Part shown: positions 560-59,097 of the stretch, piece by piece
Numbering within the stretch: the stretch's first letter is position 1
How the letters are laid out: each line of letters begins with the position of its first letter
DNA from: Bacteroidaceae bacterium
Lineage (GTDB): Bacteria > Bacteroidota > Bacteroidia > Bacteroidales > Bacteroidaceae
Direction: 5' to 3'
Length of the DNA stretch: 64,000 bases
Assembly: GCA_017427065.1 (NCBI GenBank)
Contig: JAFRTL010000021.1
Location: 1 to 64,000 of the forward strand
Notes under the pieces: model-generated
Databases searched by the model: none
What the model was told of the DNA's origin: nothing
Seen by the model: the letters and a program-made list of their open reading frames with translations, nothing else
Program-made: the position numbers and the translations under genes

Positions 560-928
560 ATGGATATAACAATTAAGAGAAATAAGAAGGTGAACAGCCT
601 ACGCAATGCACAGGGCTTCAAGGTGAAGCGCTGCTGCCTGAGCTGCACGCACAAGTTCTATGACTCCAGAGGCCAACGCCGTTGCGACCTTTGTCTGCTC
701 CATGTTGGGACGAAGGATGGTTGTGATCGCTGGGAGATGCATGCAGTCCTTAAACAGGCAGGGCTCCGTCCTGGCAAAGTGAAACGCAAGGACTACCTGA
801 GGTTTGTTCAGAAGATTCGTTCAGAAGAAAAGGTACTCTTGGAGCAAAGCCAAATCACGCTGAAGGAATGTAAGACGGCAGAGCAGCTGAGAACGGAGTT
901 TGGTAAAAATATTTATGCAATAAATTGA
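560..928 (+). CDS. Small Cys-rich protein, possible zinc ribbon
   Basis: The protein has 122 residues. Near the N-terminus there is a CC-x2-C cluster, followed about 14 residues later by C-x2-C and a further Cys about 9 residues on. This spacing suggests a metal-binding knuckle. The C-terminal half is basic, helical and Lys/Glu-rich, which would suit nucleic-acid binding. I do not recognise a named family. It lies about 55 bases downstream of a good promoter and heads the block that leads to the DUF3987 gene. Its stop codon TGA (926-928) falls inside a 7-bp-period repeat array, so the last residues may derive from repeat sequence. Function is unknown. Confidence 0.65.
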   Translation: MDITIKRNKKVNSLRNAQGFKVKRCCLSCTHKFYDSRGQRRCDLCLLHVGTKDGCDRWEMHAVLKQAGLRPGKVKRKDYLRFVQKIRSEEKVLLEQSQITLKECKTAEQLRTEFGKNIYAIN

Positions 929-950
929 GAATTGAAAATTGAAAATTAAT
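923..950. repeat. 7-bp-period array (AATTGAR units)
   Basis: Consecutive units AATTGAG, AATTGAA, AATTGAA, AATTAAT. The stop codon of the preceding gene lies within the first unit. Confidence 0.75.
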
Positions 951-1048
951 TAACCCGAGTCGATGGATGAGTGAAGGGGAAGTATCTGGATATAATTGAG
1001 CTCAAACTACACTTTCACTTCTACCAGAACTCAAAAATCGAATCAAAA

Positions 1049-1366
1049 ATGAAGAAGTTTATTGAAGTTTCAGAAGAAACAATGGTTCGCCTTATGGAAG
1101 GCAAGTGTGTGGAAGGTTCGCTGCGTGTGGACGAGTTGAGCAACAAGCTAGTGTTCAGGGCTTACAATCGTGTGTCGCACAGACGCAAGGATCGTGTAAT
1201 AGCCTACCTGGAGCATGGCTGGATCAAGGAGAGTTCCCAGCGCTACAAGTTCTACAACTCTGTGCGTAAGGACATTGGGGTGACTAAGGTGAGCGTGGTG
1301 ATGCATCGCGAACTGGGCACTGCGATGGAGGAAGTGAAAATGGATAGAATGCTGGACATTCTGTAA
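1049..1366 (+). CDS. Hypothetical basic protein
   Basis: The frame is open from 971, but the likely start is the ATG at 1049, which gives a 105-residue protein beginning MKKFIEVSEE; the upstream stretch looks like translated intergenic sequence. The protein is basic (many Lys/Arg, including an SHRRKDR motif) and has no Cys pair, signal peptide or membrane segment. The family is not recognised. It lies between the Cys-rich protein and the DUF3987 gene on the same strand, so it is probably part of the same transcript and the same accessory unit. A repeat array begins at its TAA stop. Confidence 0.6.
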   Translation: MKKFIEVSEETMVRLMEGKCVEGSLRVDELSNKLVFRAYNRVSHRRKDRVIAYLEHGWIKESSQRYKFYNSVRKDIGVTKVSVVMHRELGTAMEEVKMDRMLDIL

Positions 1367-1431
1367 ATTGAAAATTGAAAATTGAGAATTGAAAATTAAC
1401 CATGCGGATTATAATGTTCAATGCTCAATAA
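1364..1431. repeat. Two 7-bp-period arrays separated by a GC-rich spacer
   Basis: AATTGAA-type units run from the stop codon to about 1399. A short spacer with ATGCGGAT follows, then AATGTTC/AATGCTC-type units at 1412-1431. The order (units, short core, second unit type) matches the longer composite repeats elsewhere in the window. Confidence 0.7.
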
Positions 1432-1446
1432 TAAAAAATTAAGATT

Positions 1447-3924
1447 ATGTTTAGTTATCAGAGACATTTATTTGAACCTACATTGCCAGTGGATGAAGAG
1501 ATGTTCTACGCACTGGTGAGAGATAAGGAGAGCAACGCACTGATTGACGGTTTCCGTCAATCAGGCGATGCCAAACTGAAGCGCAAACTGCCTGCATTTA
1601 TATTCCAGGCGACGTTTGATGATACCACCTCGAAGAGTGGTAAAACAGGGGCTTGGCGCAAGCAGAGTGCTACACGATTGACTGGCCTCGTAGTAATGGA
1701 TATTGACCACGTGGAGAATCCTCAGGAGATCATTGATGAATGGATGGGGAATTTCGACCTTCAGAAATGGGGCATTCTGCTTATCTATGTTACACCTAGC
1801 GGACATGGTATTAAGGTGGTGTTCAAGGCTCGCTTGGAATGGGGAAACCTTATCGACAACCAGCATCGCATGGCTGAACTTCTGGGCGTGGAAGTAGATG
1901 AGAGTTGCAAGGACGCGTCACGCATGAGTTTCATCTGTAAAGAGGAAGATATTGCGTATCTGGATAAGGATCTGTTCACCTATGAAAATAGGGAGTTTGC
2001 AGAGCGCTACGAAGAAGAGTATAGAGGTGGTCACAGCACAGCGACAACACCTATTGAGAGTTCACAAAACACAGCGCAGCCTAATTGTGAATTGTCAATT
2101 GTGAATTGTGAATTGCCTTTGTGGCGTGGCTTTGAAGTTCAACCCATCATCAACGCTCGTTATGCAAGCAAGCTGCCTTGTGCAGATGACTCAAATCGCC
2201 ACACAGAGAGTTTGAAATTGGCTACTGATCTACTTATCTTGCTCGATGGCGACAAGCAGGCTGTGCTAAGCATCGTGAAGGCTCAGCCTTGGGTACAGGA
2301 AATCATCCACGAGCGCAACGAGAATGTGGAACAGACTGTGCAGAGTGCTGCTATGCGCATTTCAGATCTGGAAAAGAAGTTCCGCACCCTGCAACCCTCG
2401 AAGGAGATGCTGAAAGCCATTGAGACAGCCACAGGCCTAAGCTACAAGCAGATAATTGACAATTCACAATTCACAATTGACAATTGCCCTGCGGATGACG
2501 CTGCGCAGCCTAATGCTCAATGTTCAATGCTCAATGTTCAATTGAATGAATGGGGCTCGCAGATTGAAGCTTTGTTCGCTCAGTTTCCCGTTCTCGCAGA
2601 CATTTGCAAAGGCCTCAAGCCCAACCAGTTCCCAGCTGCGCTGTTTGTGGCAGGCTCGTTCCTGATGACACTTATGACGCGCTGCACGTATCGCTTCTAC
2701 CATCGTCCAGAAGAGAAGCGCAGACTGAATAGCAGCACGATTATCGTGGGTGATCCAGCTTCAGGTAAAAGTTTCGCTACTCGACTTCACAAACTGCTGA
2801 TGGCTCCCATCTTCGCAGCTGATAAGGCAGGCAAGGCTGCCATCAATGCGTATCGCGAATTGATGAAAACCAAGGGGGCGAATAAGGAGAAGCCTAAGAA
2901 GCCTAAAGTAGTGGTTCGCGTACACCCTGCACGTACTTCTAACGCTCAGTTCATTCAAGACATGGTGAACGCTGTGGAGACCGTGGATGGTGAAGAAATG
3001 CAGCTGCACATGGTGACATTCGATACGGAGTTGGACAATACTTTGAGCATCCAGAAAGGTGGCTCTTGGATTGACAAGATTTCGTTGGAGTTGAAGGCCT
3101 TCCACAATGAGGAAGATGGCCAAGCATACTCGAATGTTGACAGTGTGCTTCAGGATTTCTACGTGACTTGGAACTATGTCTATACTGGTACGCCTCTCGC
3201 TTTGAAAAAGAAAGTAAATGAGCAGAACTTTGGTAGTGGTCTCGCTACGCGCCTTACCTGCATCCCTCTGCCATCAACCAATTTCGAGATGATGAGTCGC
3301 GAAAGAACGGTAGATTATGACAGTGATGCACGTCTGAAGGAATGGGCGTTCAAACTGGACAGAGTGAAGGGCGAACTGAGCGTTCAGAAGATTGTGGATG
3401 AGCTGTACGAGTGGACTGCCAGACGCATGGCTGACGCCAAGGATAATGACTCTCGTGCTGACGAGATGCTGCTGAAGCGCTGCGCGTATCATGGGCTGAA
3501 CTTCGCAGCTCCCTTTATAGTGATGCGTCACTGGGATAAGATGCAACAAGAGGGCGACTACTGGTGTGGCAGCTTCGAGACAGACGAGGTGGATTGGCAG
3601 CTCGCAGAACTGATCGTGAACATGCAATATGCTTGTCAGAAGCACTATTTTGGAGCCATGGCAGAGGCGTATTTCGATAACAAACTGCGTGATGCTTCTG
3701 TAAATGTGCAGCGCAGACAGAAGACCTTAGAGGGCTTCAGTAAGCTACCAGAGGTGTTCACTGTAAAAGACGTGATGCGCTGCTTTAACTTAGTCAGTGA
3801 AGGGACAGCACGAATGAAGATAGTTCGCCTGATAGCTGATAAACTGGTGATGAAAGCGAGTACATACACTGAAGACGGACACGCCAAGAAGATGTACAAG
3901 AAGACAGGCTCCTTTATGATCTGA
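1447..3924 (+). CDS. VirE-N/BT4734-like and DUF3987 domain protein
   Basis: The protein has 825 residues. Residues 1 to about 190 resemble the BT4734-like/VirE N-terminal domain (core around VVMDIDHVENPQEI and TPSGHGIKVVF), which is related to primase-type folds. From about residue 385 the protein resembles DUF3987, with a P-loop-like motif GDPASGKS at about 435-442. Such proteins are common in Bacteroidales accessory regions and are thought to act in replication or helicase-type functions of mobile elements; the precise role is not established. The linker at residues 213-223 and 336-367 is translated 7-bp-period repeat sequence (NCELSIVNCEL; then DNSQFTIDN and NAQCSMLNVQLN), in frame and without stops. 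Family confidence is high, function is uncertain. Confidence 0.85.
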   Translation: MFSYQRHLFEPTLPVDEEMFYALVRDKESNALIDGFRQSGDAKLKRKLPAFIFQATFDDTTSKSGKTGAWRKQSATRLTGLVVMDIDHVENPQEIIDEWMGNFDLQKWGILLIYVTPSGHGIKVVFKARLEWGNLIDNQHRMAELLGVEVDESCKDASRMSFICKEEDIAYLDKDLFTYENREFAERYEEEYRGGHSTATTPIESSQNTAQPNCELSIVNCELPLWRGFEVQPIINARYASKLPCADDSNRHTESLKLATDLLILLDGDKQAVLSIVKAQPWVQEIIHERNENVEQTVQSAAMRISDLEKKFRTLQPSKEMLKAIETATGLSYKQIIDNSQFTIDNCPADDAAQPNAQCSMLNVQLNEWGSQIEALFAQFPVLADICKGLKPNQFPAALFVAGSFLMTLMTRCTYRFYHRPEEKRRLNSSTIIVGDPASGKSFATRLHKLLMAPIFAADKAGKAAINAYRELMKTKGANKEKPKKPKVVVRVHPARTSNAQFIQDMVNAVETVDGEEMQLHMVTFDTELDNTLSIQKGGSWIDKISLELKAFHNEEDGQAYSNVDSVLQDFYVTWNYVYTGTPLALKKKVNEQNFGSGLATRLTCIPLPSTNFEMMSRERTVDYDSDARLKEWAFKLDRVKGELSVQKIVDELYEWTARRMADAKDNDSRADEMLLKRCAYHGLNFAAPFIVMRHWDKMQQEGDYWCGSFETDEVDWQLAELIVNMQYACQKHYFGAMAEAYFDNKLRDASVNVQRRQKTLEGFSKLPEVFTVKDVMRCFNLVSEGTARMKIVRLIADKLVMKASTYTEDGHAKKMYKKTGSFMI
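2083..2115. repeat. 7-bp-period array inside the DUF3987 coding sequence, copy 1
   Basis: Units AATTGTG, AATTGTC, AATTGTG, AATTGTG, AATTG, directly preceded by the core GCGCAGCCT that also flanks arrays elsewhere. Three units make 21 bases, so the translation repeats every seven residues. Confidence 0.85.
2453..2547. repeat. Composite 7-bp-period repeat inside the DUF3987 coding sequence, copy 2
   Basis: AATTGAC/AATTCAC units run from 2453 to about 2487, then a GC-rich core containing GCGGATGACGCTGCGCAGCC, then AATGCTC/AATGTTC units to about 2547. The three-part layout is the same as in the intergenic copies at 5.9 and 59.0 kb. Confidence 0.85.
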
Positions 3925-3980
3925 GCCAACGCAACACGCAACATGCAACATTCGATTTTTTAATTTTAAAATTTATAATT

Positions 3981-4430
3981 ATGAATACAATATCAAGAGG
4001 ATTGCGGAACAATAATCCGCTGAATATTCGCCACGGGCATAGCCAGTGGCAGGGAAGAACTGAGGCACAGACAGACAGAGAATTCGTGTGCTTCATGACT
4101 ATGGGAATGGGGTATCGTGCTGCATGGAAAATCTTGCAGACGTACTACGAATCGCTGCCTAAGATGGGAAAGATTTTCTGCCTGTACCAGATCATCCATC
4201 GCTGGGCACCACCTGAGGACAATAACGATACCTCTGCGTATCTGAACAGGGTGACAAAGCTTACAGGCATATCTGCGATGCAGTCACTGCCAGAGCCTCG
4301 CACTGAAGAAGGCTACAGGGTGCTTCACGACGTCATCATCGCCATGACGTGTGTAGAGAACGGCATCAAGCCTGAAGAGGTGCCTGTGTCTGCGATACTG
4401 CAAGGGTATCAGTTGGCGTTCAAGAAATAA
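3981..4430 (+). CDS. P5-like structural/lytic protein
   Basis: The protein has 149 residues. The N-terminus carries the motif RGLRNNNPLNIRHG, typical of proteins annotated 'structural protein P5' in Bacteroidales and related to phage lytic transglycosylase-like virion proteins. A peptidoglycan-directed role is therefore likely but not shown. There is no signal peptide. It lies 56 bases after the DUF3987 gene on the same strand and is the last gene of the accessory block. In Bacteroidales genomes DUF3987 genes and lysozyme/amidase-type genes are often neighbours, which supports a shared element origin. A terminator-like hairpin follows. Confidence 0.7.
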   Translation: MNTISRGLRNNNPLNIRHGHSQWQGRTEAQTDREFVCFMTMGMGYRAAWKILQTYYESLPKMGKIFCLYQIIHRWAPPEDNNDTSAYLNRVTKLTGISAMQSLPEPRTEEGYRVLHDVIIAMTCVENGIKPEEVPVSAILQGYQLAFKK

Positions 4431-4468
4431 CTAATATAATAATTATTTAAGTTAATACAATATGTGGC

Positions 4469-4501
4469 CCCCTCTTCGCTGTGAAGCGCGGAGGGTTTTT
4501 T
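4469..4501 (+). terminator. Intrinsic terminator of the accessory block
   Basis: CCCTC (4470-4474) pairs with GAGGG (4491-4495), with an inner CTTC/GAAG pairing, followed by six T. Confidence 0.65.
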
Positions 4502-4572
4502 GCAAAAATCTCAAAAAGGTGCAAGAAAGTCTGTTTTACCAAATGTAGGGGCTAAAAATATCTGCCCTTCTT

Positions 4573-5451: not shown

Positions 5452-5474
5452 GTGGCTAATTTTTAAACTCGGTG

Positions 5475-5483
5475 GCAAAAATA
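5475..5483 (-). promoter_or_regulatory. -7 element of the araC-type gene
   Basis: On the minus strand this reads TATTTTTGC. It places the transcription start near 5468 and so decides the start codon at 5451. No well-spaced -33 TTTG is visible. Confidence 0.5.
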
Positions 5484-5574
5484 ATAAAATTTTTTAAAAT
5501 GAGTTTTGTTTCAGACAAATTTTTGCAAGAATAGAATTTATCCATTTGTGTGGAATGTACTTATTTTGCACCCA

Positions 5575-5702
5575 AAAAAATAGTTAATTACTGGTGGAAG
5601 GATAATATACTATCCAAAATAATAACAACATAAAGAACTAAACAAATACAGATTGACTAAGTTTTGGAGGAGGAGAGGCCGTGAGGTTTTTTCTCCTTTT
5701 TT
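5575..5702 (+). ncRNA. Possible short transcript ending in an intrinsic terminator
   Basis: AGGAGA (5671-5676) pairs with TCTCCT (5692-5697), followed by a T run to 5702, on the plus strand, where no gene lies upstream. A -7-like TTATTTTGC at 5561-5569 could start it, but the -33 spacing is poor. A GGATA/TATCC hairpin lies near 5602-5617. This is weak evidence for a small RNA; nothing else is seen in the 5452-5730 gap. Confidence 0.3.
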
Positions 5703-5859: not shown

Positions 5860-5885
5860 GCGAAGCTGAAAAGCTTCGCTTTTTT
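5860..5885 (+). terminator. Intrinsic terminator of tRNA-Arg
   Basis: GCGAAGCT (5860-5867) and AGCTTCGC (5872-5879) form a perfect 8-bp stem with a GAAA-type loop, followed by six T. Confidence 0.9.
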
Positions 5886-6060
5886 AATTCACAATTGACA
5901 ATTCACAATTGACAATTCACTACGTTGATTATCGGCTGCACCTCAGCATAGCTCAAGCAAGCTTGGCTCTGCGTTCGGTTTGCACGATAATTCACAATTA
6001 CCATCCGGATGGGAACGGCAAAGCAGTAATTCTCAATTCTCAATGTTCAATGTTCAATAA
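5886..6060. repeat. Composite repeat: 7-bp arrays around a GC-rich core
   Basis: AATTCAC/AATTGAC units (5886-5920) are followed by a core of about 65 bases, a short AATTCAC stretch, the palindrome CATCCGGATG (about 6002-6011) with a second core, and AATTCTC/AATGTTC units to 6060. The array ends a few bases from the stop codon of the amylase gene on the other strand. The palindrome also occurs in the copy near 59.07 kb. Confidence 0.8.
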
Positions 6061-7750: not shown

Positions 7751-7796
7751 ATTCAATTCACAATTCACAATTGACAATTCACAATTACGGCTGCGC
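7751..7796. repeat. 7-bp array with the GCGCAGCC core between the patatin and amylase genes
   Basis: AATTCAC/AATTGAC units (plus strand) run from 7753 to about 7786, followed by CGGCTGCGC. Read on the minus strand this is GCGCAGCC-G-TAATTGTGAATTG, the same junction as in the DUF3987 gene. The end of the patatin coding sequence lies inside it. Confidence 0.85.
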
Positions 7797-8712: not shown

Positions 8713-11175
8713 ATGAATATTTCTTACAATTGGCTCAAGGAGTACTTGGATTTCAACCTTACCCCAGAAGAAACCTCAGTGGCACTGACTTCCATCGGAC
8801 TGGAAGTGGGCTCTGTGGAGGAAGTGCAGACCGTGAAAGGCGGACTGGAAGGACTGGTGATCGGACAGGTGCTCACGTGTGAGCCTCATCCTAATTCAGA
8901 CCACATGCACGTCACTACCGTGGACTTGGGACAGGGTGAGCCTGCACAAATCGTCTGTGGTGCCCCTAACGTGGCCGCTGGACAGAAGGTAGTGGTGGCT
9001 CCACTAGGCTGCAAGCTGTACGATGGTGAGGAGTGCTTTACCATCAAGAGAGCAAAACTGCGTGGCATTGAATCGTGTGGTATGATCTGTGCTGAAGACG
9101 AGATAGGTATCGGTACCGACCATTCGGGCATCATCGTGCTGCCTGATACTGCCGTGGTAGGCACACTGGCGAAAGATTACTATAACATCAAGAGCGACTA
9201 TGTGATAGAGGTGGACATCACACCTAACCGTGCGGATGCCTGCTCACACTACGGTGTGGCTCGCGACCTCTATGCTTACTTAGTGCAGAACAATAAGCCT
9301 GCCAAGCTGCATAAGCCATCGGTGGATGCTTTCAAGGTGGAGAACCATGACCTGGACATCCCTGTGATCGTGGAGAACGGTGAGGCTTGTCCTCGCTATG
9401 CTGGCGTGACTGTGAAGGGCGTGACCGTGAAGGAGAGTCCGGAGTGGTTGCAAGACCGTCTGCGTACCATCGGCCTGCGTCCTATCAACAATATCGTGGA
9501 TATCACCAACTATATCTGCCACGGATTCGGACATCCGATGCATTGTTTCGATGCCGATAAGATTAAGGGTGGCAAAGTGGTGGTAAAGACGATGCCTGAA
9601 GGTACGCCATTCGTCACACTCGATGGCGTGGAGCGCAAGCTCAGTGAGCGCGACCTGATGATCTGCAATGCCGAGGAGCCTATGTGTATCGGTGGTGTGT
9701 TTGGCGGACTGGAGAGTGGTACTACGGAGGAGACAAAGAACGTGTTCCTGGAGAGTGCTTACTTCCATCCAACGTGGATCAGAAAGACGGCTCGCCGTCA
9801 TGGTTTGAGCACGGATGCCAGTTTTCGTTTCGAACGTGGCATTGATCCTAACAATGCTGTCTATATCCTGAAGCTCGCTGCCTTGATGGTGAAAGAGTTG
9901 GCTGGTGGTACCATCGCTTCCGACGTGAAGGATGTGGCTGCGTCTGACTTCCCTCCATTCCGTGTGGAACTGGATTACCAGAAGGCTTATGAACTGATAG
10001 GTAAGGAAATCGGTAAGGATACCATCAAGCACATCTGCAGCAGTCTGGAGATGGAGATCGTGAACGAGACACCTGAAGTGCTCACACTGGATGTGCCTCG
10101 CTACCGTGTGGATGTGCAGCATCCTTGCGACGTGGTGGAAGATGTGCTGCGTATCTATGGATATAATAATGTGGAGATACCTACCACGCTGAAATCAAGT
10201 CTGACTGTCAAGGGGGATGCTGACCGTTCGCAGCGTATGCAGAACCTGATCAGTGAGCAACTGGTGGGCGAGGGTTTCAACGAGATCATGAACAACTCAC
10301 TGACGCGTGCGGCTTACTATGATAACCTGCAGAGCTATCCTGCTGCCAACTTGGTGCACTTGATGAATCCGTTGAGCAATGACCTCAACGTGATGCGTCA
10401 GACGTTGCTCTTCGGTGGTTTGGAGAGTGTGGCACGTAACATCAACCATAAGAGTCCAGACCTTCGTTTCTTCGAGTTTGGCAACTGCTACTATTTCCGT
10501 GAGGAGCGTCGCAATCCTGAAAAGGCATTGGCTCCTTATAGCGAGGACTATCACTTGGGCATGTGGCTCACGGGTAAGCGTGTGGCTGGCTCTTGGGCAC
10601 ATACCGATGAAGACAGCACGGTGTATGAGTTGAAGGCTTATGTGGAGAATGTGCTGAATCGTCTGGGCATTCTGGCTGGACAACTTCAGACGGCACGTGC
10701 TGAGGAGGATATCTTCTCTGCTGCCCTGAGTCTGAATCTGCGTAACGGCAAGCGTGCGGCTGTGTTTGGCATGGTGGCACGTGGTATCTTGAAGCAGATG
10801 GATATTGACCAGCCTGTGTTCTTTGCCGACTTGAACTGGAACGAACTGATGAAGTTGCAGAAGGGTTATAAGGTCAGCTTCAAGGAAATAGCCAAATATC
10901 CTGCCGTTAAGCGCGACTTGGCACTGCTTGTGGATGAATCGGTACAATTCGGCGACATTGAGAAGTTGGCCTTCGAGACCGATCGTAAGTTGCTGAAGAA
11001 GGTTACCTTGTTCGACGTGTATGAAGGCAAGACGCTGATGGCTGGTAAGAAGAGCTATGCTGTGAGCTTCACCCTTCAGGATGAGAATCAGACCTTGAAC
11101 GACAAGGCCATCGACAAGGTGATGCAGAAACTGATCTACAACTTGGAGAACAAGTTGGGTGCTAAGCTGAGATAG
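8713..11175 (+). CDS. pheT: Phenylalanine--tRNA ligase beta subunit
   Basis: The 820-residue beta chain of the alpha2-beta2 enzyme charges tRNA-Phe with phenylalanine. An N-terminal OB-fold tRNA-binding domain lies at about residues 40-155 (HPNSDHMHVTTVD, VCGAPN), the B3/B4 editing domain at about 210-390, B5 at about 410-480 (VDVQHPCDVVEDVLRIYGY), a catalytic-like core follows, and the FDX-ACB anticodon-binding domain occupies the last ~95 residues (YPAVKRDLALLVD). The open frame begins at 8485, but the ATG at 8713 (MNISYNWLKEYLDF) matches the family start and follows the promoter. pheS is not in the window. Its TAG stop is the first triplet of a 7-bp-period array. Confidence 0.97.
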   Translation: MNISYNWLKEYLDFNLTPEETSVALTSIGLEVGSVEEVQTVKGGLEGLVIGQVLTCEPHPNSDHMHVTTVDLGQGEPAQIVCGAPNVAAGQKVVVAPLGCKLYDGEECFTIKRAKLRGIESCGMICAEDEIGIGTDHSGIIVLPDTAVVGTLAKDYYNIKSDYVIEVDITPNRADACSHYGVARDLYAYLVQNNKPAKLHKPSVDAFKVENHDLDIPVIVENGEACPRYAGVTVKGVTVKESPEWLQDRLRTIGLRPINNIVDITNYICHGFGHPMHCFDADKIKGGKVVVKTMPEGTPFVTLDGVERKLSERDLMICNAEEPMCIGGVFGGLESGTTEETKNVFLESAYFHPTWIRKTARRHGLSTDASFRFERGIDPNNAVYILKLAALMVKELAGGTIASDVKDVAASDFPPFRVELDYQKAYELIGKEIGKDTIKHICSSLEMEIVNETPEVLTLDVPRYRVDVQHPCDVVEDVLRIYGYNNVEIPTTLKSSLTVKGDADRSQRMQNLISEQLVGEGFNEIMNNSLTRAAYYDNLQSYPAANLVHLMNPLSNDLNVMRQTLLFGGLESVARNINHKSPDLRFFEFGNCYYFREERRNPEKALAPYSEDYHLGMWLTGKRVAGSWAHTDEDSTVYELKAYVENVLNRLGILAGQLQTARAEEDIFSAALSLNLRNGKRAAVFGMVARGILKQMDIDQPVFFADLNWNELMKLQKGYKVSFKEIAKYPAVKRDLALLVDESVQFGDIEKLAFETDRKLLKKVTLFDVYEGKTLMAGKKSYAVSFTLQDENQTLNDKAIDKVMQKLIYNLENKLGAKLR

Positions 11176-11240
11176 GGCTTAGGGCTTAGAGTTTAGAGTT
11201 TAGAGTTAAGAGTTAAGAGTTAAGAGTTTAGGGTTAAGAG
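11173..11240. repeat. 7-bp-period array (TAGAGTT type) after pheT
   Basis: Nine full units in register: TAGGGCT x2, TAGAGTT x3, AAGAGTT x3, TAGGGTT, then AAGAG. The first unit begins with the pheT stop codon. This is the longest regular array in the window. Confidence 0.9.
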
Positions 11241-14274: not shown

Positions 14275-14376
14275 AATATTATGCACACAATTTTATAATT
14301 TTCACGATTTTAGCTTTAAAATCCATCTTTCATGTGCATCAAAAGGCGTTCCGTATATTCGCTGATTGATTTTCAT

Positions 14377-14438
14377 AACCCCTAAACCCTACACTCTAAA
14401 CTCTAAACTCTAAACCCTAAACACTAAACTCTAAACCA
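14377..14438. repeat. 7-bp-period array (CTCTAAA/CCCTAAA type)
   Basis: About eight units such as CTCTAAA, CCCTAAA and CACTAAA. This is the reverse-complement form of the TAGAGTT array after pheT. It lies between divergent genes, upstream of the mutY promoter. Confidence 0.85.
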
Positions 14439-14477
14439 AAAACCAGATTATATGGGAGAAAGATAAAAGAATAGTCG

Positions 14478-17424: not shown

Positions 17425-18279
17425 ATGTTACGCATTGCTGTACAATCAAAAGGTCGTCTATACGATGAGACTATGTCCTTCCTTTCGGAGTCGGACATCA
17501 AACTTAGTGCTACCAAACAACGCGCTTTACTGGTAGAATCAACGAATTTCCCTTTGGAGGTGCTTTATCTCCGTGATGATGATATTCCTCAAACCGTGGC
17601 CTCTGGCGTGGCTGATATCGGTATTGTCGGTGAGAATGAGTTTGTTGAACGTGGAGAAGATGCAGACATCATCAAGCGTTTGGGATTCAGCAAATGCCGT
17701 CTGTCATTGGCTATTCCTAAGGATGTGGAATATACAGGCGTACAATGGTTTAATGGAAAGAAAATAGCAACCAGTTATCCACATATTTTGGAAAAATTCT
17801 TGGCAGAGAATGGCGTGAATGCTTCGATCCATGTGATCAATGGCTCTGTGGAGATTTCTCCGGGAATAGGACTCGCTGATGCGATCTTCGATATCGTGAG
17901 TTCGGGCTCTACACTGGTAAGCAACCGTCTGCGTGAAGTGGAAGTGGTGATGAAATCGGAGGCCTTGCTTATAGGAAACAAGTCAATCAGCGAAGAGAAG
18001 AAAGAGGTGCTTGAAGAACTGCTTTTCCGTATGAATGCCGTTAAAGCTGCCGAGGATAAGAAATATGTACTGATGAATGCTCCAAAGGACAAGGTGAATG
18101 AGATAGTGGCAGCATTGCCAGGAATCAAGAGTCCGACGGTGATGCCATTGGCTCAAGAAGGATGGTGCTCTGTACATACGGTACTTGATCAGAAACGATT
18201 CTGGGAAATCATCGGGAAACTGAAGGCGCTTGGAGCACAGGGAATCCTGGTTCTCCCCATAGAGAAAATGATAGTATAA
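17425..18279 (+). CDS. hisG: ATP phosphoribosyltransferase, long form
   Basis: HisG condenses ATP and PRPP, the first committed step of histidine synthesis. The 284-residue length and the C-terminal ~75-residue ACT-like regulatory domain identify the long, homo-hexameric form, which does not need HisZ and is feedback-inhibited by histidine through that domain. Conserved features are LQSKGRL-like (VQSKGRLYDETMSFL) at the N-terminus, the GIVGENEF motif and the phosphate-binding region DIVSSGSTL. It starts the first his block and lies 25 bases after gldE, so it may be read from the ssb promoter. The stop lies at the start of a short 7-bp array. Confidence 0.97.
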   Translation: MLRIAVQSKGRLYDETMSFLSESDIKLSATKQRALLVESTNFPLEVLYLRDDDIPQTVASGVADIGIVGENEFVERGEDADIIKRLGFSKCRLSLAIPKDVEYTGVQWFNGKKIATSYPHILEKFLAENGVNASIHVINGSVEISPGIGLADAIFDIVSSGSTLVSNRLREVEVVMKSEALLIGNKSISEEKKEVLEELLFRMNAVKAAEDKKYVLMNAPKDKVNEIVAALPGIKSPTVMPLAQEGWCSVHTVLDQKRFWEIIGKLKALGAQGILVLPIEKMIV

Positions 18280-18297
18280 TTGAACATTGAGGATTGA
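18277..18297. repeat. Short 7-bp-period array at the hisG stop codon
   Basis: Units AATTGAA, CATTGAG, GATTGAA begin inside the TAA stop of hisG. Confidence 0.55.
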
Positions 18298-35222: not shown

Positions 35223-35264
35223 TAAAAGTTTGGATTTGTTGTTTGACGCTACCGAATTGTTATA

Positions 35265-35296
35265 ATTTTCAATTTTCAGTTCTTAATTCACAATTA
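35265..35296. repeat. Short degenerate 7-bp array upstream of hisH
   Basis: Units such as AATTTTC and AATTCAC in a short run, overlapping the likely -33 region of the second his promoter. Confidence 0.4.
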
Positions 35297-48014: not shown

Positions 48015-49715
48015 ATGAAACATAAGTTTTTGCTACTTTTATTATTAAGCGTAGTTACCCTACATAGTTGGGGACAAGCTCCCAAGTGGTTAGATAAGAC
48101 TCGGAGTGCCGTCTTTTCACTGATAGCTTATGATGCAGACGGAAAGATGTTGCACTCGGGTAATGGATTCTTTATTGGTGAAGATGGGACTGCCATAGCC
48201 GACTATTCTGTGTTTGAAGGTGCTCAGCGTGCTGTCGTTGTTGATGCGCAGGGGAAACAGATGGAGGTGGAAATGATCTTAGGAGCCAACGAGATGTATG
48301 ATGTAACGAAGTTCCTTGTAAATACAGGTGGTAAAAAAGTGACTGCCCTTTCTGTGGCACAAGTGGCTCCTGCTAATAATACAACTGTCTTTCTCCTTCC
48401 TTATTCTACGCAAAAAGGTGGTGATTATGCCATTGGAAATGTCCAACGTGTAGATAGGGTAGAAGGATCCTATAGCTATTATACATTGGCGCTGGCATTG
48501 AAAGACAAGATGGTGAGTTGCCCGTTGGTGAATAACGACGGACAAGTCTTTGCTCTGGCTCAAAAATCTTCTGGGGCCGATTCTACAACTGTTTGCTATG
48601 GAATGGATGTGAAGTTTGCCAACAATCTGCAAGTGTCATCGCTTTCTTTCAATGACAATAGCCTTACTAAAATAGGCATCAAGAAAGCTCTTCCTGATAC
48701 AGAGGAAGATGCCTTGGGCCTTCTGTATATGGTCTCTATGCGTCTTTCACTGCCTGATTACTTGCAGTTGCTGAATGACTTTCTAGAAAAGTTCCCCAAT
48801 AGTGCCGATGGTTATCTGCGTAGAGCCAATGTACAGTTGGCTATCGATCAGTCGGATGATTCCATGCGAAAGGTGGAGGCCGACTTGGATAATGCCTTGA
48901 AGTCGTCTTCCAGCAAGGCTGAAGTATACTATAACAAGGCCAACATAATCTATAGCTATCTGGGAACCAATCCCCAATCGCCCTATAAGAACTGGAATGT
49001 GGACAGTGCGGTATCCGAAGTGAATAAGGCTATCCAGGAGAGTCCGCTCCCCATGTATTATCAGTTGAAGGGTGATATACTTTTTTCTAAAGCCGATTAT
49101 GCTGGCGCTTATGAGGCTTATGATGCAGTGAATCATAGTTCACTGGTTTCTGCTGCTTCTTTATATAGCGCTGCTAAGACGAAAGAACTCATGCAAGATA
49201 GTGAAGCTGCTTTAGCATTGATGGATAGTTGCATCGCCAAGTTCGCTCCTCCATATACCACAGAGGCAGCTCCCTATTTGTTGGAGCGTGGACGTATGCG
49301 CGATGAGGCTGGTCAATCCCGTCAGGCTTTATTGGATTACGATGAGTATTATCGTGCTGTAAGTACGCAAGTGAACGATGTATTTTATTATCTACGTGGC
49401 CAAGTGGCTTTCCGTGCAAGGGTTTACCAACGCGCTTTGGATGACTTTGTCGAGGCCATCGAAATGAATCCACAGGAATTGACCTATCGTGCAGAATTGG
49501 CGGTGGTCAACATGCGTGTGGGAAGAAATGAGGAAGCCCTGAATGTCTTGGCAGAAGCTGAGAAGATAGATCCTTCTTATTCAGAAATCTATCGTTTGAA
49601 AGGTTTGACACTTGTTCAGATGAAGCGGAACAATGAAGCCTGTGAGTATTTCAATAAGGCTAAAGAACTGGGAAATACAGAGGCTCAGGCATTGATAGAT
49701 AGGTATTGTAATTAG
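48015..49715 (+). CDS. Exported trypsin-like-fold protein with TPR repeats, catalytic residues apparently lost
   Basis: A 566-residue protein. A signal peptide (MKHKFLLLLLLSVVTLHSWG) is followed by a trypsin/HtrA-like domain at about residues 30-220 (SGNGFFIGEDGTAIADYSVF). HtrA proteins have a His in the NxHV position; here it reads DYSV. The GNSGGPLVN motif is replaced by DKMVSCPLVNNDG, so the catalytic Ser also seems lost. Residues about 225-566 are TPR-type helical repeats (PNSADGYLRRANVQLAI; EAEKIDPSYSEIYRLKG). It is likely a scaffold or sensor in the periplasm. It follows recN by 11 bases; its end runs into a short repeat. Confidence 0.82.
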   Translation: MKHKFLLLLLLSVVTLHSWGQAPKWLDKTRSAVFSLIAYDADGKMLHSGNGFFIGEDGTAIADYSVFEGAQRAVVVDAQGKQMEVEMILGANEMYDVTKFLVNTGGKKVTALSVAQVAPANNTTVFLLPYSTQKGGDYAIGNVQRVDRVEGSYSYYTLALALKDKMVSCPLVNNDGQVFALAQKSSGADSTTVCYGMDVKFANNLQVSSLSFNDNSLTKIGIKKALPDTEEDALGLLYMVSMRLSLPDYLQLLNDFLEKFPNSADGYLRRANVQLAIDQSDDSMRKVEADLDNALKSSSSKAEVYYNKANIIYSYLGTNPQSPYKNWNVDSAVSEVNKAIQESPLPMYYQLKGDILFSKADYAGAYEAYDAVNHSSLVSAASLYSAAKTKELMQDSEAALALMDSCIAKFAPPYTTEAAPYLLERGRMRDEAGQSRQALLDYDEYYRAVSTQVNDVFYYLRGQVAFRARVYQRALDDFVEAIEMNPQELTYRAELAVVNMRVGRNEEALNVLAEAEKIDPSYSEIYRLKGLTLVQMKRNNEACEYFNKAKELGNTEAQALIDRYCN

Positions 49716-49731
49716 TTTAGAGTTTAAGGTT
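49713..49731. repeat. Short TTAGAGT-type repeat at a stop codon
   Basis: TTAGTTTAGAGTTTAAG begins at the TAG stop of the preceding gene. It is a short form of the 7-bp arrays at 11.2 and 14.4 kb. Confidence 0.5.
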
Positions 49732-49747
49732 TTTTATATAAGTGATT

Positions 49748-54658: not shown

Positions 54659-54672
54659 GTACTTTTAGTGGC

Positions 54673-56412
54673 TTATTTGTTGATTTTTCCCCACGTGTCC
54701 TTCAGACCTACGGTACGGTTGAAGACCATCTTCTCAGGGGTAGAGTCCTTGTCCACATTGAAATAGCCGATGCGCTGGAATTGCAGATAAGTCAGTGGCT
54801 TCATGCCCGCGGTGAACTTCTCCACATAGCAGTGCTCCAGGATGTTCAGTGAGTCAGGATTGATCATTTCCTTCATGGCCGTCAGTGAGTCGCACTGCTT
54901 GGCTTCTTTGATGGCCTCCAGCGCATCGCGTGGGTTCTCTTCCTTCCACAGACGGTCGTAGAGGCGCACTTCGCACTCCATACAGTCGTGCGTGCTCAGC
55001 CAGTGGATGGTACCCTTCACCTTACGGTTAGCCCCAGGCATACCGCTCTTTGACTCAGGATCATACTCACAGTACACCTCCAGCACGTTGCCCTGCTCAT
55101 CTTTCTTACAGCCAGTGCATTTCACGATGTAGGCATTCTTTAGGCGCACCTCCTGTCCAGGTGTCATACGGAAATATTTCTTAGGCGCATCCTCCATGAA
55201 GTCGTCTTGCTCTATCCAAAGTTCGCGACTGAATTCTATCTGGTGGGTGCCCTCTTCGGGATGCTCCGGATTGTTGATCGCTTCCATCTGCTCTATTTGA
55301 CCTTCAGGGTAGTTGGTGATGACCAACTTCACGGGATGCAGCACTGCAGAGACGCGTGTAGAGCGGTCGTTCAGATCTTCTCGCACGGCACTCTCCAGCA
55401 AGGCGAAATCGTTCAGTGCATCGTAGGTGGTATAGCCTATCTTATCCACGAACTTGCGGATAGATTCAGGCGAATAGCCACGACGGCGGAAACCGCACAG
55501 AGTCGGCATACGTGGATCGTCCCAACCATTCACCAAGCCCTCTTTCACCAGAATCAGCAGGTTGCGCTTACTCAGCAGCACGTAGTTCAGATTCAGCTTG
55601 TTGAACTCATACTGGTGTGGGCGATTGTCGTCCAGATCCTTGCCCTCTTTCACCCAGTCCACAAAGAGATCGTAGAGTGGGCGGTGAGGCACGAACTCCA
55701 GTGTACACAGCGAGTGCGTTACCCCCTCGAAATAATCACTCTGTCCGTGCGCAAAGTCGTACATCGGATAAGCTTTCCATTTCGTACCCGTATGCGGATG
55801 TGGATGATTCACCACACGGTAGATGATCGGATCGCGGAAGTGCATGTTAGGACTGGCCATATCTATCTTGGCACGCAGTACCATGGCGCCTTCAGGAATC
55901 TCGCCCGTATTCATCTTCTGGAACAGTGCCAGACTCTCTTCCATCGGACGGTTGCGGTAAGGGCTCTCCACACCCGGTTGGGTAGGGGTTCCCTTCTGTT
56001 GGGCTATCTGCTCGCTGGTCTGTTCGTCTATATAAGCTTTCCCCTCCTTAATAAGATTAATAGCAAAGTCCCAGAGTTGCTGGAAGTAGTCAGAGGCATT
56101 ATACACATTGGCCCACTTGAAGCCCAGCCATTGGATATCCTCCTTGATGGCGTCTATGTATTCCATATCCTCCTTGGTGGGGTTCGTATCATCAAATCTA
56201 AGGTTGCACACACCTCCATACTTGGCGGCGATGCCAAAGTCCATGCAGATGGCCTTCGCATGACCGATGTGCAGGTACCCATTAGGCTCGGGTGGGAAGC
56301 GCGTCTGTACTCTACCACCGTTCTTACCCTCTGCCAAGTCTTTCTCAACTATTTGTTCAATGAAGTTCAGGCTTTTCTTCTCGGCCAGTTCTTCGTTCTT
56401 AATCTCTGCCAT
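54673..56412 (-). CDS. glnS: Glutamine--tRNA ligase
   Basis: A 579-residue class I synthetase that charges tRNA-Gln. The HIGH motif appears as PEPNGYLHIGHAK, and the KMSKS-like motif as LLSKRNLL. The N-terminal Rossmann domain runs to about residue 265, then the anticodon-binding beta barrels (HPVKLVITNYPEG; RMTPGQEVRLKNAYIVKC) fill the rest. The enzyme group is GlnRS rather than GluRS by length and by the DGVTHSLCTLEF-like region (EGVTHSLCTLEF). A -7 element lies at 56440-56447. Confidence 0.96.
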   Translation of the reverse strand: MAEIKNEELAEKKSLNFIEQIVEKDLAEGKNGGRVQTRFPPEPNGYLHIGHAKAICMDFGIAAKYGGVCNLRFDDTNPTKEDMEYIDAIKEDIQWLGFKWANVYNASDYFQQLWDFAINLIKEGKAYIDEQTSEQIAQQKGTPTQPGVESPYRNRPMEESLALFQKMNTGEIPEGAMVLRAKIDMASPNMHFRDPIIYRVVNHPHPHTGTKWKAYPMYDFAHGQSDYFEGVTHSLCTLEFVPHRPLYDLFVDWVKEGKDLDDNRPHQYEFNKLNLNYVLLSKRNLLILVKEGLVNGWDDPRMPTLCGFRRRGYSPESIRKFVDKIGYTTYDALNDFALLESAVREDLNDRSTRVSAVLHPVKLVITNYPEGQIEQMEAINNPEHPEEGTHQIEFSRELWIEQDDFMEDAPKKYFRMTPGQEVRLKNAYIVKCTGCKKDEQGNVLEVYCEYDPESKSGMPGANRKVKGTIHWLSTHDCMECEVRLYDRLWKEENPRDALEAIKEAKQCDSLTAMKEMINPDSLNILEHCYVEKFTAGMKPLTYLQFQRIGYFNVDKDSTPEKMVFNRTVGLKDTWGKINK

Positions 56413-56439
56413 AATGCTTAAAAGGTTAAAATGAGGTTA

Positions 56440-56447
56440 CAAAAATA
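56440..56447 (-). promoter_or_regulatory. -7 element of glnS
   Basis: TATTTTTG on the minus strand, 28 bases before the ATG. No -33 TTTG is visible. Confidence 0.5.
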
Positions 56448-56622
56448 CGCAATTTCTATCACCTAAAGAAATTTTCTGAACTTCTTATGAAAAAAAAAGC
56501 GTAGTCTCTCAAAAAAATGCTTATCTTTGAAAAGTTTATGGAAATGGCCGTAAGTAAGAAACAATTTTTTGCATCTTTTTTTGAAAAAAGTTGAAAATAT
56601 GTTATATGACATACTTTTATAT

Positions 56623-56654
56623 TTTGCTGTCCATAAAAAAAACCTTTACTTTGC
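56623..56654 (+). promoter_or_regulatory. Promoter of a short transcript
   Basis: TTTG (56623-56626), a 19-base spacer and TTACTTTGC (56646-56654), one mismatch to TAnnTTTGC. The transcript would start near 56661. Confidence 0.6.
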
Positions 56655-56660
56655 AGCGTT

Positions 56661-56745
56661 ATCCTGAAAACAATCTTTTTACCTTAAAAACTAATACCTA
56701 TTGAAAAATGAAAAAAGGGGCTTTGTGAAAAGCTCCTTTTTTTGT
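56661..56745 (+). ncRNA. Candidate small RNA of about 85 nt
   Basis: Between the promoter at 56623 and a terminator (AGGGGCTTT/AAAGCTCC stem, then seven T, 56714-56745) lies no gene. A six-codon frame (MKKGAL, 56708-56728) overlaps the terminator stem and may be chance or a leader peptide. No gene follows before 57569. Confidence 0.5.
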
Positions 56746-56848
56746 GTATATAAATGACCTTGAAAGGCCGATTCAGAGGGCGTTTCCGTCGTTTTTCGGA
56801 CTAAAATTGGACTAACTATCACTTTTTTCTAAAAAAATGCCCTAAATA

Positions 56849-56880
56849 TTTGTGATTTCTAAAATCGCTTTCTATTTTTG
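56849..56880 (+). promoter_or_regulatory. Promoter of the 56.9-kb noncoding transcript
   Basis: TTTG (56849-56852) and TATTTTTG (56873-56880) with a 20-base spacer, a full consensus match on the plus strand. Confidence 0.7.
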
Positions 56881-56886
56881 TGGTAA

Positions 56887-57156
56887 ATCACAAGTTTATG
56901 TATCACATAATATAACCAATTAATAATTAAGGAAAGGGGCATTAATACTAAAAAAAGGGAATCGGCTATTAGGAGATGGAGGTTCTTGTGATTTTCTCCA
57001 CGCTGGCAAAAGGCCAGTTACAAGGGGTACTGATAAGTACGTCTTGAATCACTATAAATTAAAATTTTATTAACTCTGCTTTATTAGTTATAATAAGGTG
57101 GGTCTATAAAATAAGGGTTATAAAAAGGTACAGATTTCGGTCTGTGCCTTTTTCTT
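56887..57156 (+). ncRNA. Candidate structured noncoding RNA of about 270 nt
   Basis: It runs from a consensus promoter to an intrinsic terminator (AGGTACAGA/TCTGTGCCT stem, loop TTTCGG, 57126-57150, then TTTTTC). No frame longer than a few codons is open near the 5' end. Inside, GTGATT (56988-56993) can pair with AATCAC (57047-57052), enclosing CTGGC-AAAA-GCCAG and GTACT-GATA-AGTAC hairpins: a possible three-way junction. It does not match RNase P, tmRNA, SRP or 6S features that I can recognise. Confidence 0.5.
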
Positions 57157-57568
57157 TAGTAAAAAAAATAAAAAAAAATAGGGTAGAAGTGATACAACAT
57201 TCAAACATAATCTCTATATTAGCACTCGATATAGTCATGACGGGGTATTCCGTTCGCGAGAATCGTATGCCCAAAAGTTAGTAATGGTTTATTTATGAGA
57301 TTTTGCATTTCATAGTTTTGAAATGAACTTCGCAGCTGTCATCGTGATGAAGGCAGCTGTTTTCATATTATACCCTTCGAAAAGTTAAAATCTGTCATTC
57401 CGATACATCTTTCATTATTTTGTCGTAGATTTGTAGTGTAGAAAAAACTTTGCATGCCGATGCAGTATTTTAAAGATTCTGCATTCTACTTATAGAAAAG
57501 GTATAGAAAAAGATTTTCTATTGCAAATTAAACGTATTGGTAAACCTCAATTAAATAAAAGAACGAGT
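57157..57568. other. Intergenic region upstream of the aromatic-rich exported protein
   Basis: A hairpin AGCTG-CATC/GATG-CAGCT at 57333-57358 followed by GTTTTC could be a weak terminator of a third short plus-strand transcript. TAGATTTG (57426-57433) is a possible -7 for the gene at 57569. Nothing else is seen. Confidence 0.4.
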
Positions 57569-58981
57569 ATGAAAAAGATTGTTTTGTTGACGCTAATGGC
57601 GCTGGGCATTCCGCTGGTGCTGAGTGCTCAAAATGTAAATGACGACCTTTATTACGTTCCTTCAAGCAAGAAAGAGGTAAAAACTCAGGAAAAGAAAGAA
57701 GTGTTGGTAAAGGACAAGAATAGTGTTCCATCTTCCATCATCGTGAAGTCTTCTACGCCCGAAGTGAGCAATGAGGCTGCAGTGATCGACGAGACGGAAT
57801 ACCGCACCGATGAAGTGACTGCTGTGGCTCCTATCGATGACATCGACGCATACAACCGTCGTTCGTCCACCTATGGGAACGCAGAAAGCACTAAGAACAA
57901 GAGTGTGGCCACCACCACTACTACCCGTAAGAAGGTAGTTGATGATGACCTGGACGGCGAGTGGATCGGCGGTTTCAATGGTACAGTGAGCGACTATGAG
58001 TATGCTACCCGTATCATCCGCTTCCGCAATCCTCGCTTTGCCATCAGCATCAGCAGCCCGCTTTACTGGGATGTAGTCTATGGCCTGACTTCTTGGGACT
58101 GGAATGTGTATGTTGACGGGCTCTACGCCTATGCTTTCCCAACCTTCTCCAACCGTCTGTGGTGGGATTGGCGCTGGAACAGCATCGGTCTGGGCTGGGG
58201 CTACGGCTGGCCTTACTACGGTTTCAATTGGGGCTGGGGCTGGTACGGAAGCTACTATCCTTGGTATAATTCTTGGTATTATCCTTGGCACTACAGCTCT
58301 TGGGGTTGGTATGGCCCATACTACTCTTGGGGCTGGCACTCTGGCTGGGGCTGGGGTGGTGGATACTATACCTATGGTCATCATCACTACGGTGGCTACT
58401 GGGGTGCACCTTACTCCTACAACTATCGCAGAAACGACCTGGGTGTAGGTACAGCAGGACGCAGCGTGTTCGGACGCAGTACGCGCACTGTGACTACTGG
58501 TACTCGCGATAACAACGGACGCACTGGCGGACGTGTTGTAAGCAGCAGCGGCAATGGTGTGAATACCCGTACCTCTAGCACCGCCTCCTCACGCGTAGCT
58601 CGTCGTGCCGACACCGGCACGGTAGGTGGCGCAAGCGGCAGCACTGGTACCACTATCAATACACGCAGTGCAACGACCCGTCGTTCTACGGGTACCAGCT
58701 CTGCATCTCGCAGTAGCAGCAGCACGGGCGTGAATCGCACCTACAGCACTTCTTCTTCACGTATGAACAGTCGTACGGGCAGCAGCAGCTCTTCTGTAGG
58801 TACTCGCGGCACCACTACCACGACGCGTAGCTATGGAGGCACTAGCACTCGCAGTTATAGCAGCGGTGGCGGCGGTTTCAGCGGAGGCGGTAGCGTAAGC
58901 TCTGGCGGTGGCGCATCAACTCGCAGCTCTGGCGGTGGCGTAAGCTCTGGCGGTGGTGGCGGTGGCGCACGCAGAAGATGA
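57569..58981 (+). CDS. Exported low-complexity protein, Trp/Tyr/Gly-rich then Ser/Arg/Gly-rich
   Basis: The open frame starts at 57521, but the ATG at 57569 begins a clear signal peptide (MKKIVLLTLMALGIPLVLSA), giving 470 residues. Residues 20 to about 125 are a charged, Val/Lys/Thr-rich linker. Residues about 130-195 contain a compact stretch (DGEWIGGFNGTVSDYEYATR). Residues about 197-287 are extremely rich in Trp, Tyr and Gly (WWDWRWNSIGLGWGYGW). Residues about 290-470 are Ser/Thr/Arg/Gly-rich and end in GGG and SGG runs. I do not recognise the family; similar low-complexity exported proteins occur in Bacteroidales. It may be surface-located or an assembly-prone protein (inference). Confidence 0.8.
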   Translation: MKKIVLLTLMALGIPLVLSAQNVNDDLYYVPSSKKEVKTQEKKEVLVKDKNSVPSSIIVKSSTPEVSNEAAVIDETEYRTDEVTAVAPIDDIDAYNRRSSTYGNAESTKNKSVATTTTTRKKVVDDDLDGEWIGGFNGTVSDYEYATRIIRFRNPRFAISISSPLYWDVVYGLTSWDWNVYVDGLYAYAFPTFSNRLWWDWRWNSIGLGWGYGWPYYGFNWGWGWYGSYYPWYNSWYYPWHYSSWGWYGPYYSWGWHSGWGWGGGYYTYGHHHYGGYWGAPYSYNYRRNDLGVGTAGRSVFGRSTRTVTTGTRDNNGRTGGRVVSSSGNGVNTRTSSTASSRVARRADTGTVGGASGSTGTTINTRSATTRRSTGTSSASRSSSSTGVNRTYSTSSSRMNSRTGSSSSSVGTRGTTTTTRSYGGTSTRSYSSGGGGFSGGGSVSSGGGASTRSSGGGVSSGGGGGGARRR

Positions 58982-58989
58982 TAGCATAT

Positions 58990-59097
58990 TGAGAATTGAA
59001 CATTGAACATTGAGCATTAGGGCTGCGCCATGAATTTCAGCAGCGCAGCTTTAGCCCATCCGGATGGAAATGTTCAATGCTCAATGTTCAATTATAA
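58990..59097. repeat. Composite repeat: 7-bp arrays around GC-rich core
   Basis: AATTGAA/CATTGAA/CATTGAG units (58990-59018), then core GGGCTGCGCC ... AGCGCAGC with the palindrome CATCCGGATG (59058-59067), then AATGTTC/AATGCTC units to about 59095. The reverse complement contains GCGCAGCCCTAATGCTCAAT, the same junction as inside the DUF3987 gene. Confidence 0.8.

What the first reader, a model, noticed from the sequence alone, without database searches (positions are those of the whole stretch)
923..59095. 7-bp-period arrays that repeatedly begin at or inside stop codons
Degenerate arrays with a strict 7-bp period (AATTGAR, AATGYTC, TAGAGTT and complements) recur across the window. In at least six cases the array starts at or within the stop codon of the preceding gene: the Cys-rich protein (926), the next small gene (1364), pheT (11173, TAG is the first triplet of a unit), hisG (18277), the TPR protein (49713) and dedA (52590, minus). 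The patatin stop also lies in one, and the amylase and aromatic-rich protein genes end within about 4-10 bases of one. They resemble in form the short tandem heptamer repeats (STRR) known in cyanobacteria. The preference for gene ends suggests a 3' UTR role, a strand-slippage origin at stop codons, or targeted insertion.
Basis: partly seen in the sequence, partly recalled or inferred. Interest (0 to 1): 0.72.

Follow-up and report, generated by a model that had tools for sequence, protein, structure and literature searches.

The report
Seven-base repeat cassettes at gene ends
Short blocks of seven-base repeats, most often about 30 bases long, are scattered through this Bacteroides-like bacterium and sit mostly right after genes; near-identical gene copies carry different blocks of nearly the same length at the same spot, so whole blocks seem to be exchanged and not only stretched by copying slips.

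Summary
The period-7 arrays are real: 77 in 864 kb of this genome, against a mean of 3.7 for six other periods and none in one intergenic Markov null. Of the nine gene ends named, six carry a clear array, hisG and the TPR gene about 2.7 degenerate copies, dedA none. The host is Bacteroides-like, not a cyanobacterium. The gene-end preference is genuine: 43 of 66 arrays lie within 10 bp of a stop or overlap it, null 23.4 (sd 3.1), and a second species agrees. Stops are mostly native. Part of the pattern is automatic: NATTGAR and TTTAGRG carry stop codons, and period 7 shows them in every frame. Many arrays are arms of roughly 100-bp palindromic dispersed elements. Lengths peak at 31-33 bp in this genome and at 29-34 bp in a relative with mostly other units. 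Homologous genes carry arrays of different families at the same in-frame sites, aligned without gaps. Best reading: small non-autonomous palindromic elements with heptamer arms, moved and exchanged as blocks and sorted by selection. How they move is unknown; plain slippage is not excluded.

The parts
923..947 (+). NATTGAR array; holds the TGA stop (926-928) of the ORF at 560-928
1362..1397 (+). NATTGAR array overlapping the TAA stop (1364-1366) of the ORF at 971-1366
1413..1430 (-). short inverted partner of array 1362-1397; weak hairpin, z -2.8
2083..2115 (+). in-frame AATTGTS array (33 bp) in the BT4734-like gene, site P1; other families in homologues
2451..2486 (+). in-frame AATTSAC array, site P2; same in paralogue C23, missing in paralogue C4
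2512..2542 (+). in-frame AATGYTC array, site P3; C23 has AATTCTC/AATCCTC and C4 AATTGTS there
3929..3950 (+). AYGCAAC array, 4 bp after the stop of the BT4734-like gene
5886..5920 (-). AATTSAC array, gene-sense AATTGTS
5884..6000 (.). dispersed element; pieces of 55-109 bp match 14 listed places in relative G136 at 79-95% identity (only 40 of 175 candidates were scored)
6028..6058 (-). NATTGAR array in gene sense, 3 bp after the amylase stop
7754..7786 (-). AATTGTS array (gene sense) filling nearly all of a 34-bp spacer and overlapping the patatin stop
11173..11238 (+). TTTAGRG-family array starting at the TAG stop of pheT
14376..14445 (-). CTCTAAA-family array upstream of the HhH-GPD/NUDIX (mutY-like) gene
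18279..18297 (+). degenerate NATTGAR array (about 2.7 copies) at the hisG stop
35264..35295 (+). weak AATTTTC array
49714..49732 (+). degenerate TTTAGAG array (about 2.7 copies) at the TPR gene stop
58988..59018 (+). NATTGAR left arm, 6 bp after the stop of the ORF at 57521-58981
59019..59068 (.). core with GGCTGCGC/GCGCAGC hairpin and CCATCCGGATGG palindrome
59069..59092 (-). inverted right arm; 58988-59092 folds at -46.1 kcal/mol, z -6.7

Best explanation
The arrays belong to a family of small, non-autonomous, dispersed palindromic elements. The typical form is a left arm of 4-5 heptamers, a core of about 14-94 bp, often with a GGCTGCGC/GCGCAGCC or CCATCCGGATGG motif, and an inverted right arm; lone arms are also common. 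Shown: the arms recur genome-wide in a few unit families, differ between related species at the same spacer, and differ as whole blocks between homologous genes. Inferred: blocks move and are exchanged by ectopic recombination or copying between dispersed copies, with slippage inside arrays secondary. Also inferred: selection sorts them. Divergent, promoter-bearing spacers are avoided; inside genes the stop-free strand survives; at gene ends the stop-bearing strand faces the gene and costs little, so arrays end up at or just after the native stop. In RNA, paired elements form long hairpins downstream of the gene that may end or protect mRNA; that is not shown.
For: Dispersal: own-genome inverted pairs, 35 and 96 forward matches for two spacer ranges (overlapping registers counted), reversed-pattern control 0; 116 arrays in 1.264 Mb fall in 19 canonical units, the top four holding 72. 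Exchange: at in-gene site P1 the window has AATTGTG, paralogues C23 and C4 AATTCTC/AATCCTC, relative G136 ACTCTAA, each next to the same GCGCAGCC; at P3 the three paralogues have AATGYTC, AATTCTC/AATCCTC and AATTGTS. By the array finder these six blocks are 31-33 bp, and the paralogues align there without internal gaps. Length: 31-33 bp in 41 of 116 own arrays; 29-34 bp in 38 of 66 G031 arrays, mostly of other units. Insertion: the Glf loop array is in own and G136 and absent in 10 of 10 other relatives aligned (12 of 30 loci cut were aligned). Sorting: 2 of 68 spacer arrays lie in divergent spacers, which hold 23% of spacer bases; 8 of 11 in-gene arrays sit on the strand that has no stop in any frame. 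Native stops: tail difference 0 in 7 of 13 gene pairs with an array in one species only, and in 62 of 110 pairs without.
Against: No mobilising enzyme found: PF01797 has 0 matches in this 83%-complete genome; other transposase families were not searched. 38 of 80 NATTGAR and 24 of 27 TTTAGRG clusters lack a partner arm within 220 bp. A recognised core motif lies directly before only 25 of 71 right arms, one a loose match. Target-site duplications were not looked for. Some arrays are plain expansions (275 bp at C14:166956). Exchange rests on one gene family plus one Glf insertion; a 3-nt indel adjoins P1. That in-gene arrays are open in frame is true by definition of an ORF, and 5 of the 11 come from two BT4734-like paralogues. 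Short runs of 14-16 bp are also frequent at a looser threshold (27 of 174 own). Selection on frames does not predict that lone, strictly downstream stop-bearing arrays are 15 sense to 2 antisense.
Confidence: 0.47

Rival explanations
1. Ordinary heptanucleotide simple-sequence repeats born in place by polymerase slippage and tolerated in dispensable DNA between a stop and the next promoter.
For: Period 7 dominates in own genome and G031 while units differ by species. Heptamers were reported as the commonest long simple repeats in most genomes, with a 7-nt polymerase contact proposed (Mrazek 2007, as summarised in the introduction of PMC4679880). Near pheT, 29 of 108 loci have a period-7 run of score 9 or more, usually of another unit.
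Against: The same few units at dozens of unlinked loci; a length peak at 31-33 bp; family changes without gaps inside reading frames, where single-unit slips shift frame; inverted pairing.
Confidence: 0.28
2. Selected elements downstream of genes: sense arrays act as stop signals in all three frames or as RNA-protein binding sites, and paired arms as mRNA-end hairpins or terminators.
For: Near stops NATTGAR 41 sense to 1 antisense, TTTAGRG 18 to 0; lone, strictly downstream 15 to 2 (p 0.002); three paired elements fold with z -5.9 to -9.1; some G031 cores look, by eye, like terminators with T-runs.
Against: Stop overlap is automatic; palindromic geometry puts NATTGAR first from either side; high turnover between species; arrays also lie inside genes; the pheT array (z -0.6) and 5960-6060 (z 0.9) have no special fold. 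The stop-free AATTGTS class is 4 sense to 0 antisense but 4 to 3 with the wider limits, so it gives no clear contrast.
Confidence: 0.17
3. An insertion machinery that targets stop codons.
For: Array edge at or before the stop in 19 of 40 (own) and 17 of 31 (G031) tandem elements, insertion-point null 3.4 and 3.6.
Against: That null cannot produce overlaps, so it is too low at 0 bp; within 10 bp the counts are 30 against 19.1 and 24 against 15.5. At 5' ends own has 8 at 0 or less, also above the null, G031 has 1. In-gene insertions exist. No shared target beyond the stop was found or systematically sought.
Confidence: 0.06

Closest known systems
TAACTGA heptamer direct repeats of Beggiatoaceae, cyanobacteria and five Bacteroidetes (MacGregor 2015, PMC4679880; introduction and passages read)
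   Same: Intergenic heptamer arrays; forward units give stops in all frames; 13 sets overlap a stop codon there.
   Different: One unit, mostly just upstream of start codons; here several unit families, gene 3' ends, inverted arms with a core, a length peak and in-gene exchange. The word Bacteroides does not occur in its text.
Heptanucleotide long simple sequence repeats (Mrazek et al. 2007; known only through PMC4679880)
   Same: Period 7, intergenic.
   Different: The slippage model does not cover shared families, length peak or in-gene family changes.
Cyanobacterial STRR heptamers (recalled, nothing read)
   Same: Degenerate heptamer families dispersed in a genome.
   Different: Host is Bacteroides-like; unit sequences were not compared.
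REP/BIME elements with RAYT transposases (starts of the abstracts of PMC3733652 and PMC6006769 seen in the listing; rest recalled)
   Same: Small palindromic extragenic repeats.
   Different: Arms are heptamer arrays; no PF01797 gene found in this genome.
Rickettsia palindromic elements (recalled; PMC10969869 seen only in the listing)
   Same: Palindromic repeats inserted in frame in genes.
   Different: Those are whole elements of about 100-150 bp (recalled); here in-gene blocks of 31-36 bp, and most copies are intergenic.

Membership tests
Heptanucleotide simple sequence repeats | tandem 7-nt units beyond chance | tested here: met
   77 arrays against a mean of 3.7 for periods 5, 6, 8, 10, 11, 13; periods 9 and 12, left out of that mean, gave 16 and 13
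Heptanucleotide simple sequence repeats | copy number varies freely by slippage | tested here: inconclusive
   length peak at 31-33 bp, but some long arrays; no strain series
Cyanobacterial STRR | cyanobacterial host | tested here: not met
   nearest named relatives by PheT are Bacteroides and other Bacteroidaceae
REP/RAYT system | Y1 (RAYT) transposase in the genome | tested here: not met
   PF01797 0 matches in own genome, 83% complete
REP/RAYT system | conserved tetranucleotide at the hairpin foot (recalled feature) | not tested
   not examined
MITE | short, inverted terminal repeats, no coding capacity | tested here: met
   inverted heptamer arms around cores of 14-94 bp; lone arms also occur
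MITE | target-site duplication and a matching autonomous transposon | not tested
   no close empty site held; not searched
Intrinsic terminators | GC hairpin followed by a T-run | tested here: inconclusive
   a few cores look so by eye; no count made

The most novel reading that the evidence does not exclude
Heptamer arrays are size-limited cassettes (about 31-33 bp, some 4.5 units whatever the unit sequence) that an unknown copying activity writes next to short GC anchors such as GCGCAGCC, swapping whole unit families at one site without changing the reading frame.
Probability: 0.13. Interest if true: 0.85.

Novelty: new variant of a known kind. Interest (0 to 1): 0.58.

Why it matters
Simple repeats are usually explained by slippage. 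Here a Bacteroides-like lineage shows arrays that behave like exchangeable blocks with a preferred size, between genes and inside them. If true, the question 'why seven?' could be tested in culturable Bacteroides. It also shows how apparent targeting of stop codons can arise in good part from the sequence of the repeat itself.

Tried and rejected
Truncation of genes by arrays: not supported; C-termini match orthologues about as well as those of array-free genes. General period-7 texture of all spacers: not supported in own genome; the lag-7 signal (z 8.4) falls to 0.6 in the 313 spacers without a called array. RAYT link: no PF01797 gene in own genome, and by eye no tracking with the array counts (no statistic computed). 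Rfam at gathering threshold: only three tRNAs in the window. RbpB link: passages of PMC11697453 show no matching motif, and the term UUAG does not occur in its text. Earlier reports in Bacteroides: I saw none in the listings (titles and starts of abstracts only; the library lacks most subscription journals).

Against a special role of seven everywhere: in the Prevotella-like loci lag 8 (z 8.9) is as strong as lag 7 (8.7), with 28 arrays of period 7 against a mean of 6.5 for other periods.

Limits: genes were called by my own script, so starts are rough and small genes are missed; it missed the ORF at 560-928, so array 923 counts as 510 bp from a stop. One search gives the sense label priority where both fit. 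The stop tally counted the array at C14:166956 seven times and that at C3:36162 twice; I removed the repeats by hand. Only one genome per species is held, so there is no strain series.
Full report
What was checked. The window has 13 period-7 arrays of score 12 or more, one of score 10 and weaker runs. In 864 kb of the same genome there are 77 at the working threshold of 11, a mean of 3.7 for periods 5, 6, 8, 10, 11 and 13, and none in one second-order Markov version of the intergenic sequence. Periods 9 and 12, outside that mean, gave 16 and 13; period 14, a multiple of 7, gave 54.

Which organism. PheT's nearest named relatives are Bacteroides and other Bacteroidaceae, up to 76% identical. 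The AATTGAR x3 pattern with one mismatch is found in 28 of 61 genomes searched, 25 of them among 37 of the genus, with counts from 0 to 126. It is not a cyanobacterium.

Where the arrays lie. Of 77 arrays, 68 were assigned to spacers (56 tandem, 10 convergent, 2 divergent) and 9 were inside genes or unassigned; divergent spacers hold 23% of spacer bases. Of the 66 with an adjoining 3' end, 43 lie within 10 bp of the stop or overlap it; sliding each array at random in its spacer gives 23.4, sd 3.1, at most 34 in 2000 trials. At 5' ends, 19 seen and 18.7 expected. Taking all arrays of a spacer as one element, 40 tandem elements of own (spacers up to 400 bp) have median gaps of 1 bp to the stop and 14.5 to the next start (Wilcoxon p 0.03; sign test 24 to 16, p 0.27, not significant). 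In G031, 1.2 Mb of a relative, 31 elements give -1 and 14 (Wilcoxon p 0.003; 25 to 6, sign test p 0.0009). Against an insertion-point null, within 10 bp of the stop: 30 against 19.1 (at most 28) in own, 24 against 15.5 (at most 21) in G031. Own also has 8 elements touching the next start, above the null of 3.4; G031 has 1.

Native stops. PheT ends within 2 residues of the same place in the 108 of 110 loci that could be read, one of them the window itself and a few near-duplicates; 29 of 108 have a period-7 run of score 9 or more near the stop, usually of a different unit. Among 163 reciprocal best pairs with G031, 39 below 45% identity were dropped and one had arrays in both. Of 13 with an array in one only, C-terminal tails differ by 0 in 7 and by at most 2 in 10, against 62 and 86 of 110 without arrays; two of the 13 are 6 and 8 residues longer on the array side and one is 4 shorter. 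So arrays mostly sit at the original stop.

What is automatic. NATTGAR holds TGA and TTTAGRG holds TAG; since 7 leaves 1 on division by 3, three units show the stop in every frame. MacGregor 2015 made this point for TAACTGA (PMC4679880, passages). Genes ending in the TTTAGRG class use TAG in 12 of 20 distinct cases, against 123 of 971 genome-wide. Inside genes, 11 arrays lie at least 30 bp from either end; being in ORFs they are open in frame by definition, but 8 of the 11 sit on the YTCAATN strand, which has no stop in any frame. They are not independent: five come from two BT4734-like paralogues and two from one gene. Palindromic geometry also puts NATTGAR first seen from either flank. Not explained by this: lone, strictly downstream arrays are 15 sense to 2 antisense (p 0.002), and the TTTAGRG class is rarely paired (3 of 27).

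What the arrays are. Inverted pairs ATTGARNATT..AATNYTCAAT give 35 and 96 forward matches for two spacer ranges in the whole genome, overlapping registers counted, and 0 for the reversed control. Cores often carry GGCTGCGC/GCGCAGCC or CCATCCGGATGG. Directly before right arms a recognised motif was found in 25 of 71, one of them loosely matched; GCRCAGC on either strand is in 36 of 9425 background 20-mers. Of six sequences folded, three paired elements are strong (z -6.7, -5.9, -9.1), one pair is weak (-2.8), and 5960-6060 and the pheT array are not special (0.9, -0.6).

Blocks, not just slippage. In 1.264 Mb, 116 arrays fall in 19 canonical units, the top four holding 72; G031's 66 arrays have mostly other units. 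Lengths: 41 of 116 own arrays are 31-33 bp, with a lesser peak of 15 at 24-25 bp; 38 of 66 in G031 are 29-34 bp. At a looser threshold short runs of 14-16 bp are also common, 27 of 174 and 21 of 135. The BT4734-like gene of the window (Pfam PF08800) has two long paralogues in this genome. At site P1 the window has AATTGTS, both paralogues AATTCTC/AATCCTC, and relative G136 ACTCTAA; at P3 the window has AATGYTC, C23 AATTCTC/AATCCTC, C4 AATTGTS, and G136 AATTCTC with a further element nested in it; P2 is missing in C4, and P0 is absent from the window. The finder gives 31-33 bp for the six P1 and P3 blocks of the three paralogues, which align there without internal gaps; a 3-nt indel follows P1. 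Single-unit slips would break the frame. A Glf loop carries an in-frame array in own and G136 but not in the 10 other relatives aligned, 12 of 30 loci cut having been aligned. Syntenic spacers differ: G136 has a TTAATGT array of about nine units directly before hisC where the window has only a score-7 run, a short NATTGAR run of about 2.5 units (below threshold) after the hisC stop, and about 425 bp with nested hairpins between hisG and hisD, 43 bp in the window.

Verdict. I read these as heptamer-armed, non-autonomous palindromic elements and their lone arms, spread and exchanged as blocks and sorted by selection (confidence 0.47). The step that moves them is unknown: PF01797 has no match in this incomplete genome, and no other transposase family was searched. 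Plain slippage repeats (0.28) and a selected function downstream of genes (0.17) remain open, and the three are not fully exclusive. As a kind it is a new variant of heptanucleotide repeats and small palindromic repeats.

Noticed in passing
G000:C14:166956-167230 (L099 6956-7230): 275-bp array of about 39 GTTTAGG/GTTTAGA-like units right after a stop; the unit equals the plant-type telomere heptamer (recalled resemblance, probably chance).
   Followed up: no
window 61033-61181 and 61566-61652: Other repeats: a 10-11 bp tandem repeat (AGACTTCACAT) with a nearly inverted copy, and a 22-bp tandem repeat of 3.4 copies.
   Followed up: no
L303 about 2360-2785: The hisG-hisD spacer of relative G136 is a nest of hairpins with ACGGC..GCCGT cores, against 43 bp in the window.
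   Followed up: partly
L009, L020, L039, downstream of pheT: By eye, spacers after pheT in some relatives hold tandem-like runs that my period-7 scan did not flag.
   Followed up: no
L301 2812-2919: In G136 a further dispersed element appears to be nested inside the in-frame P3 array of the BT4734-like gene while the frame stays open.
   Followed up: partly
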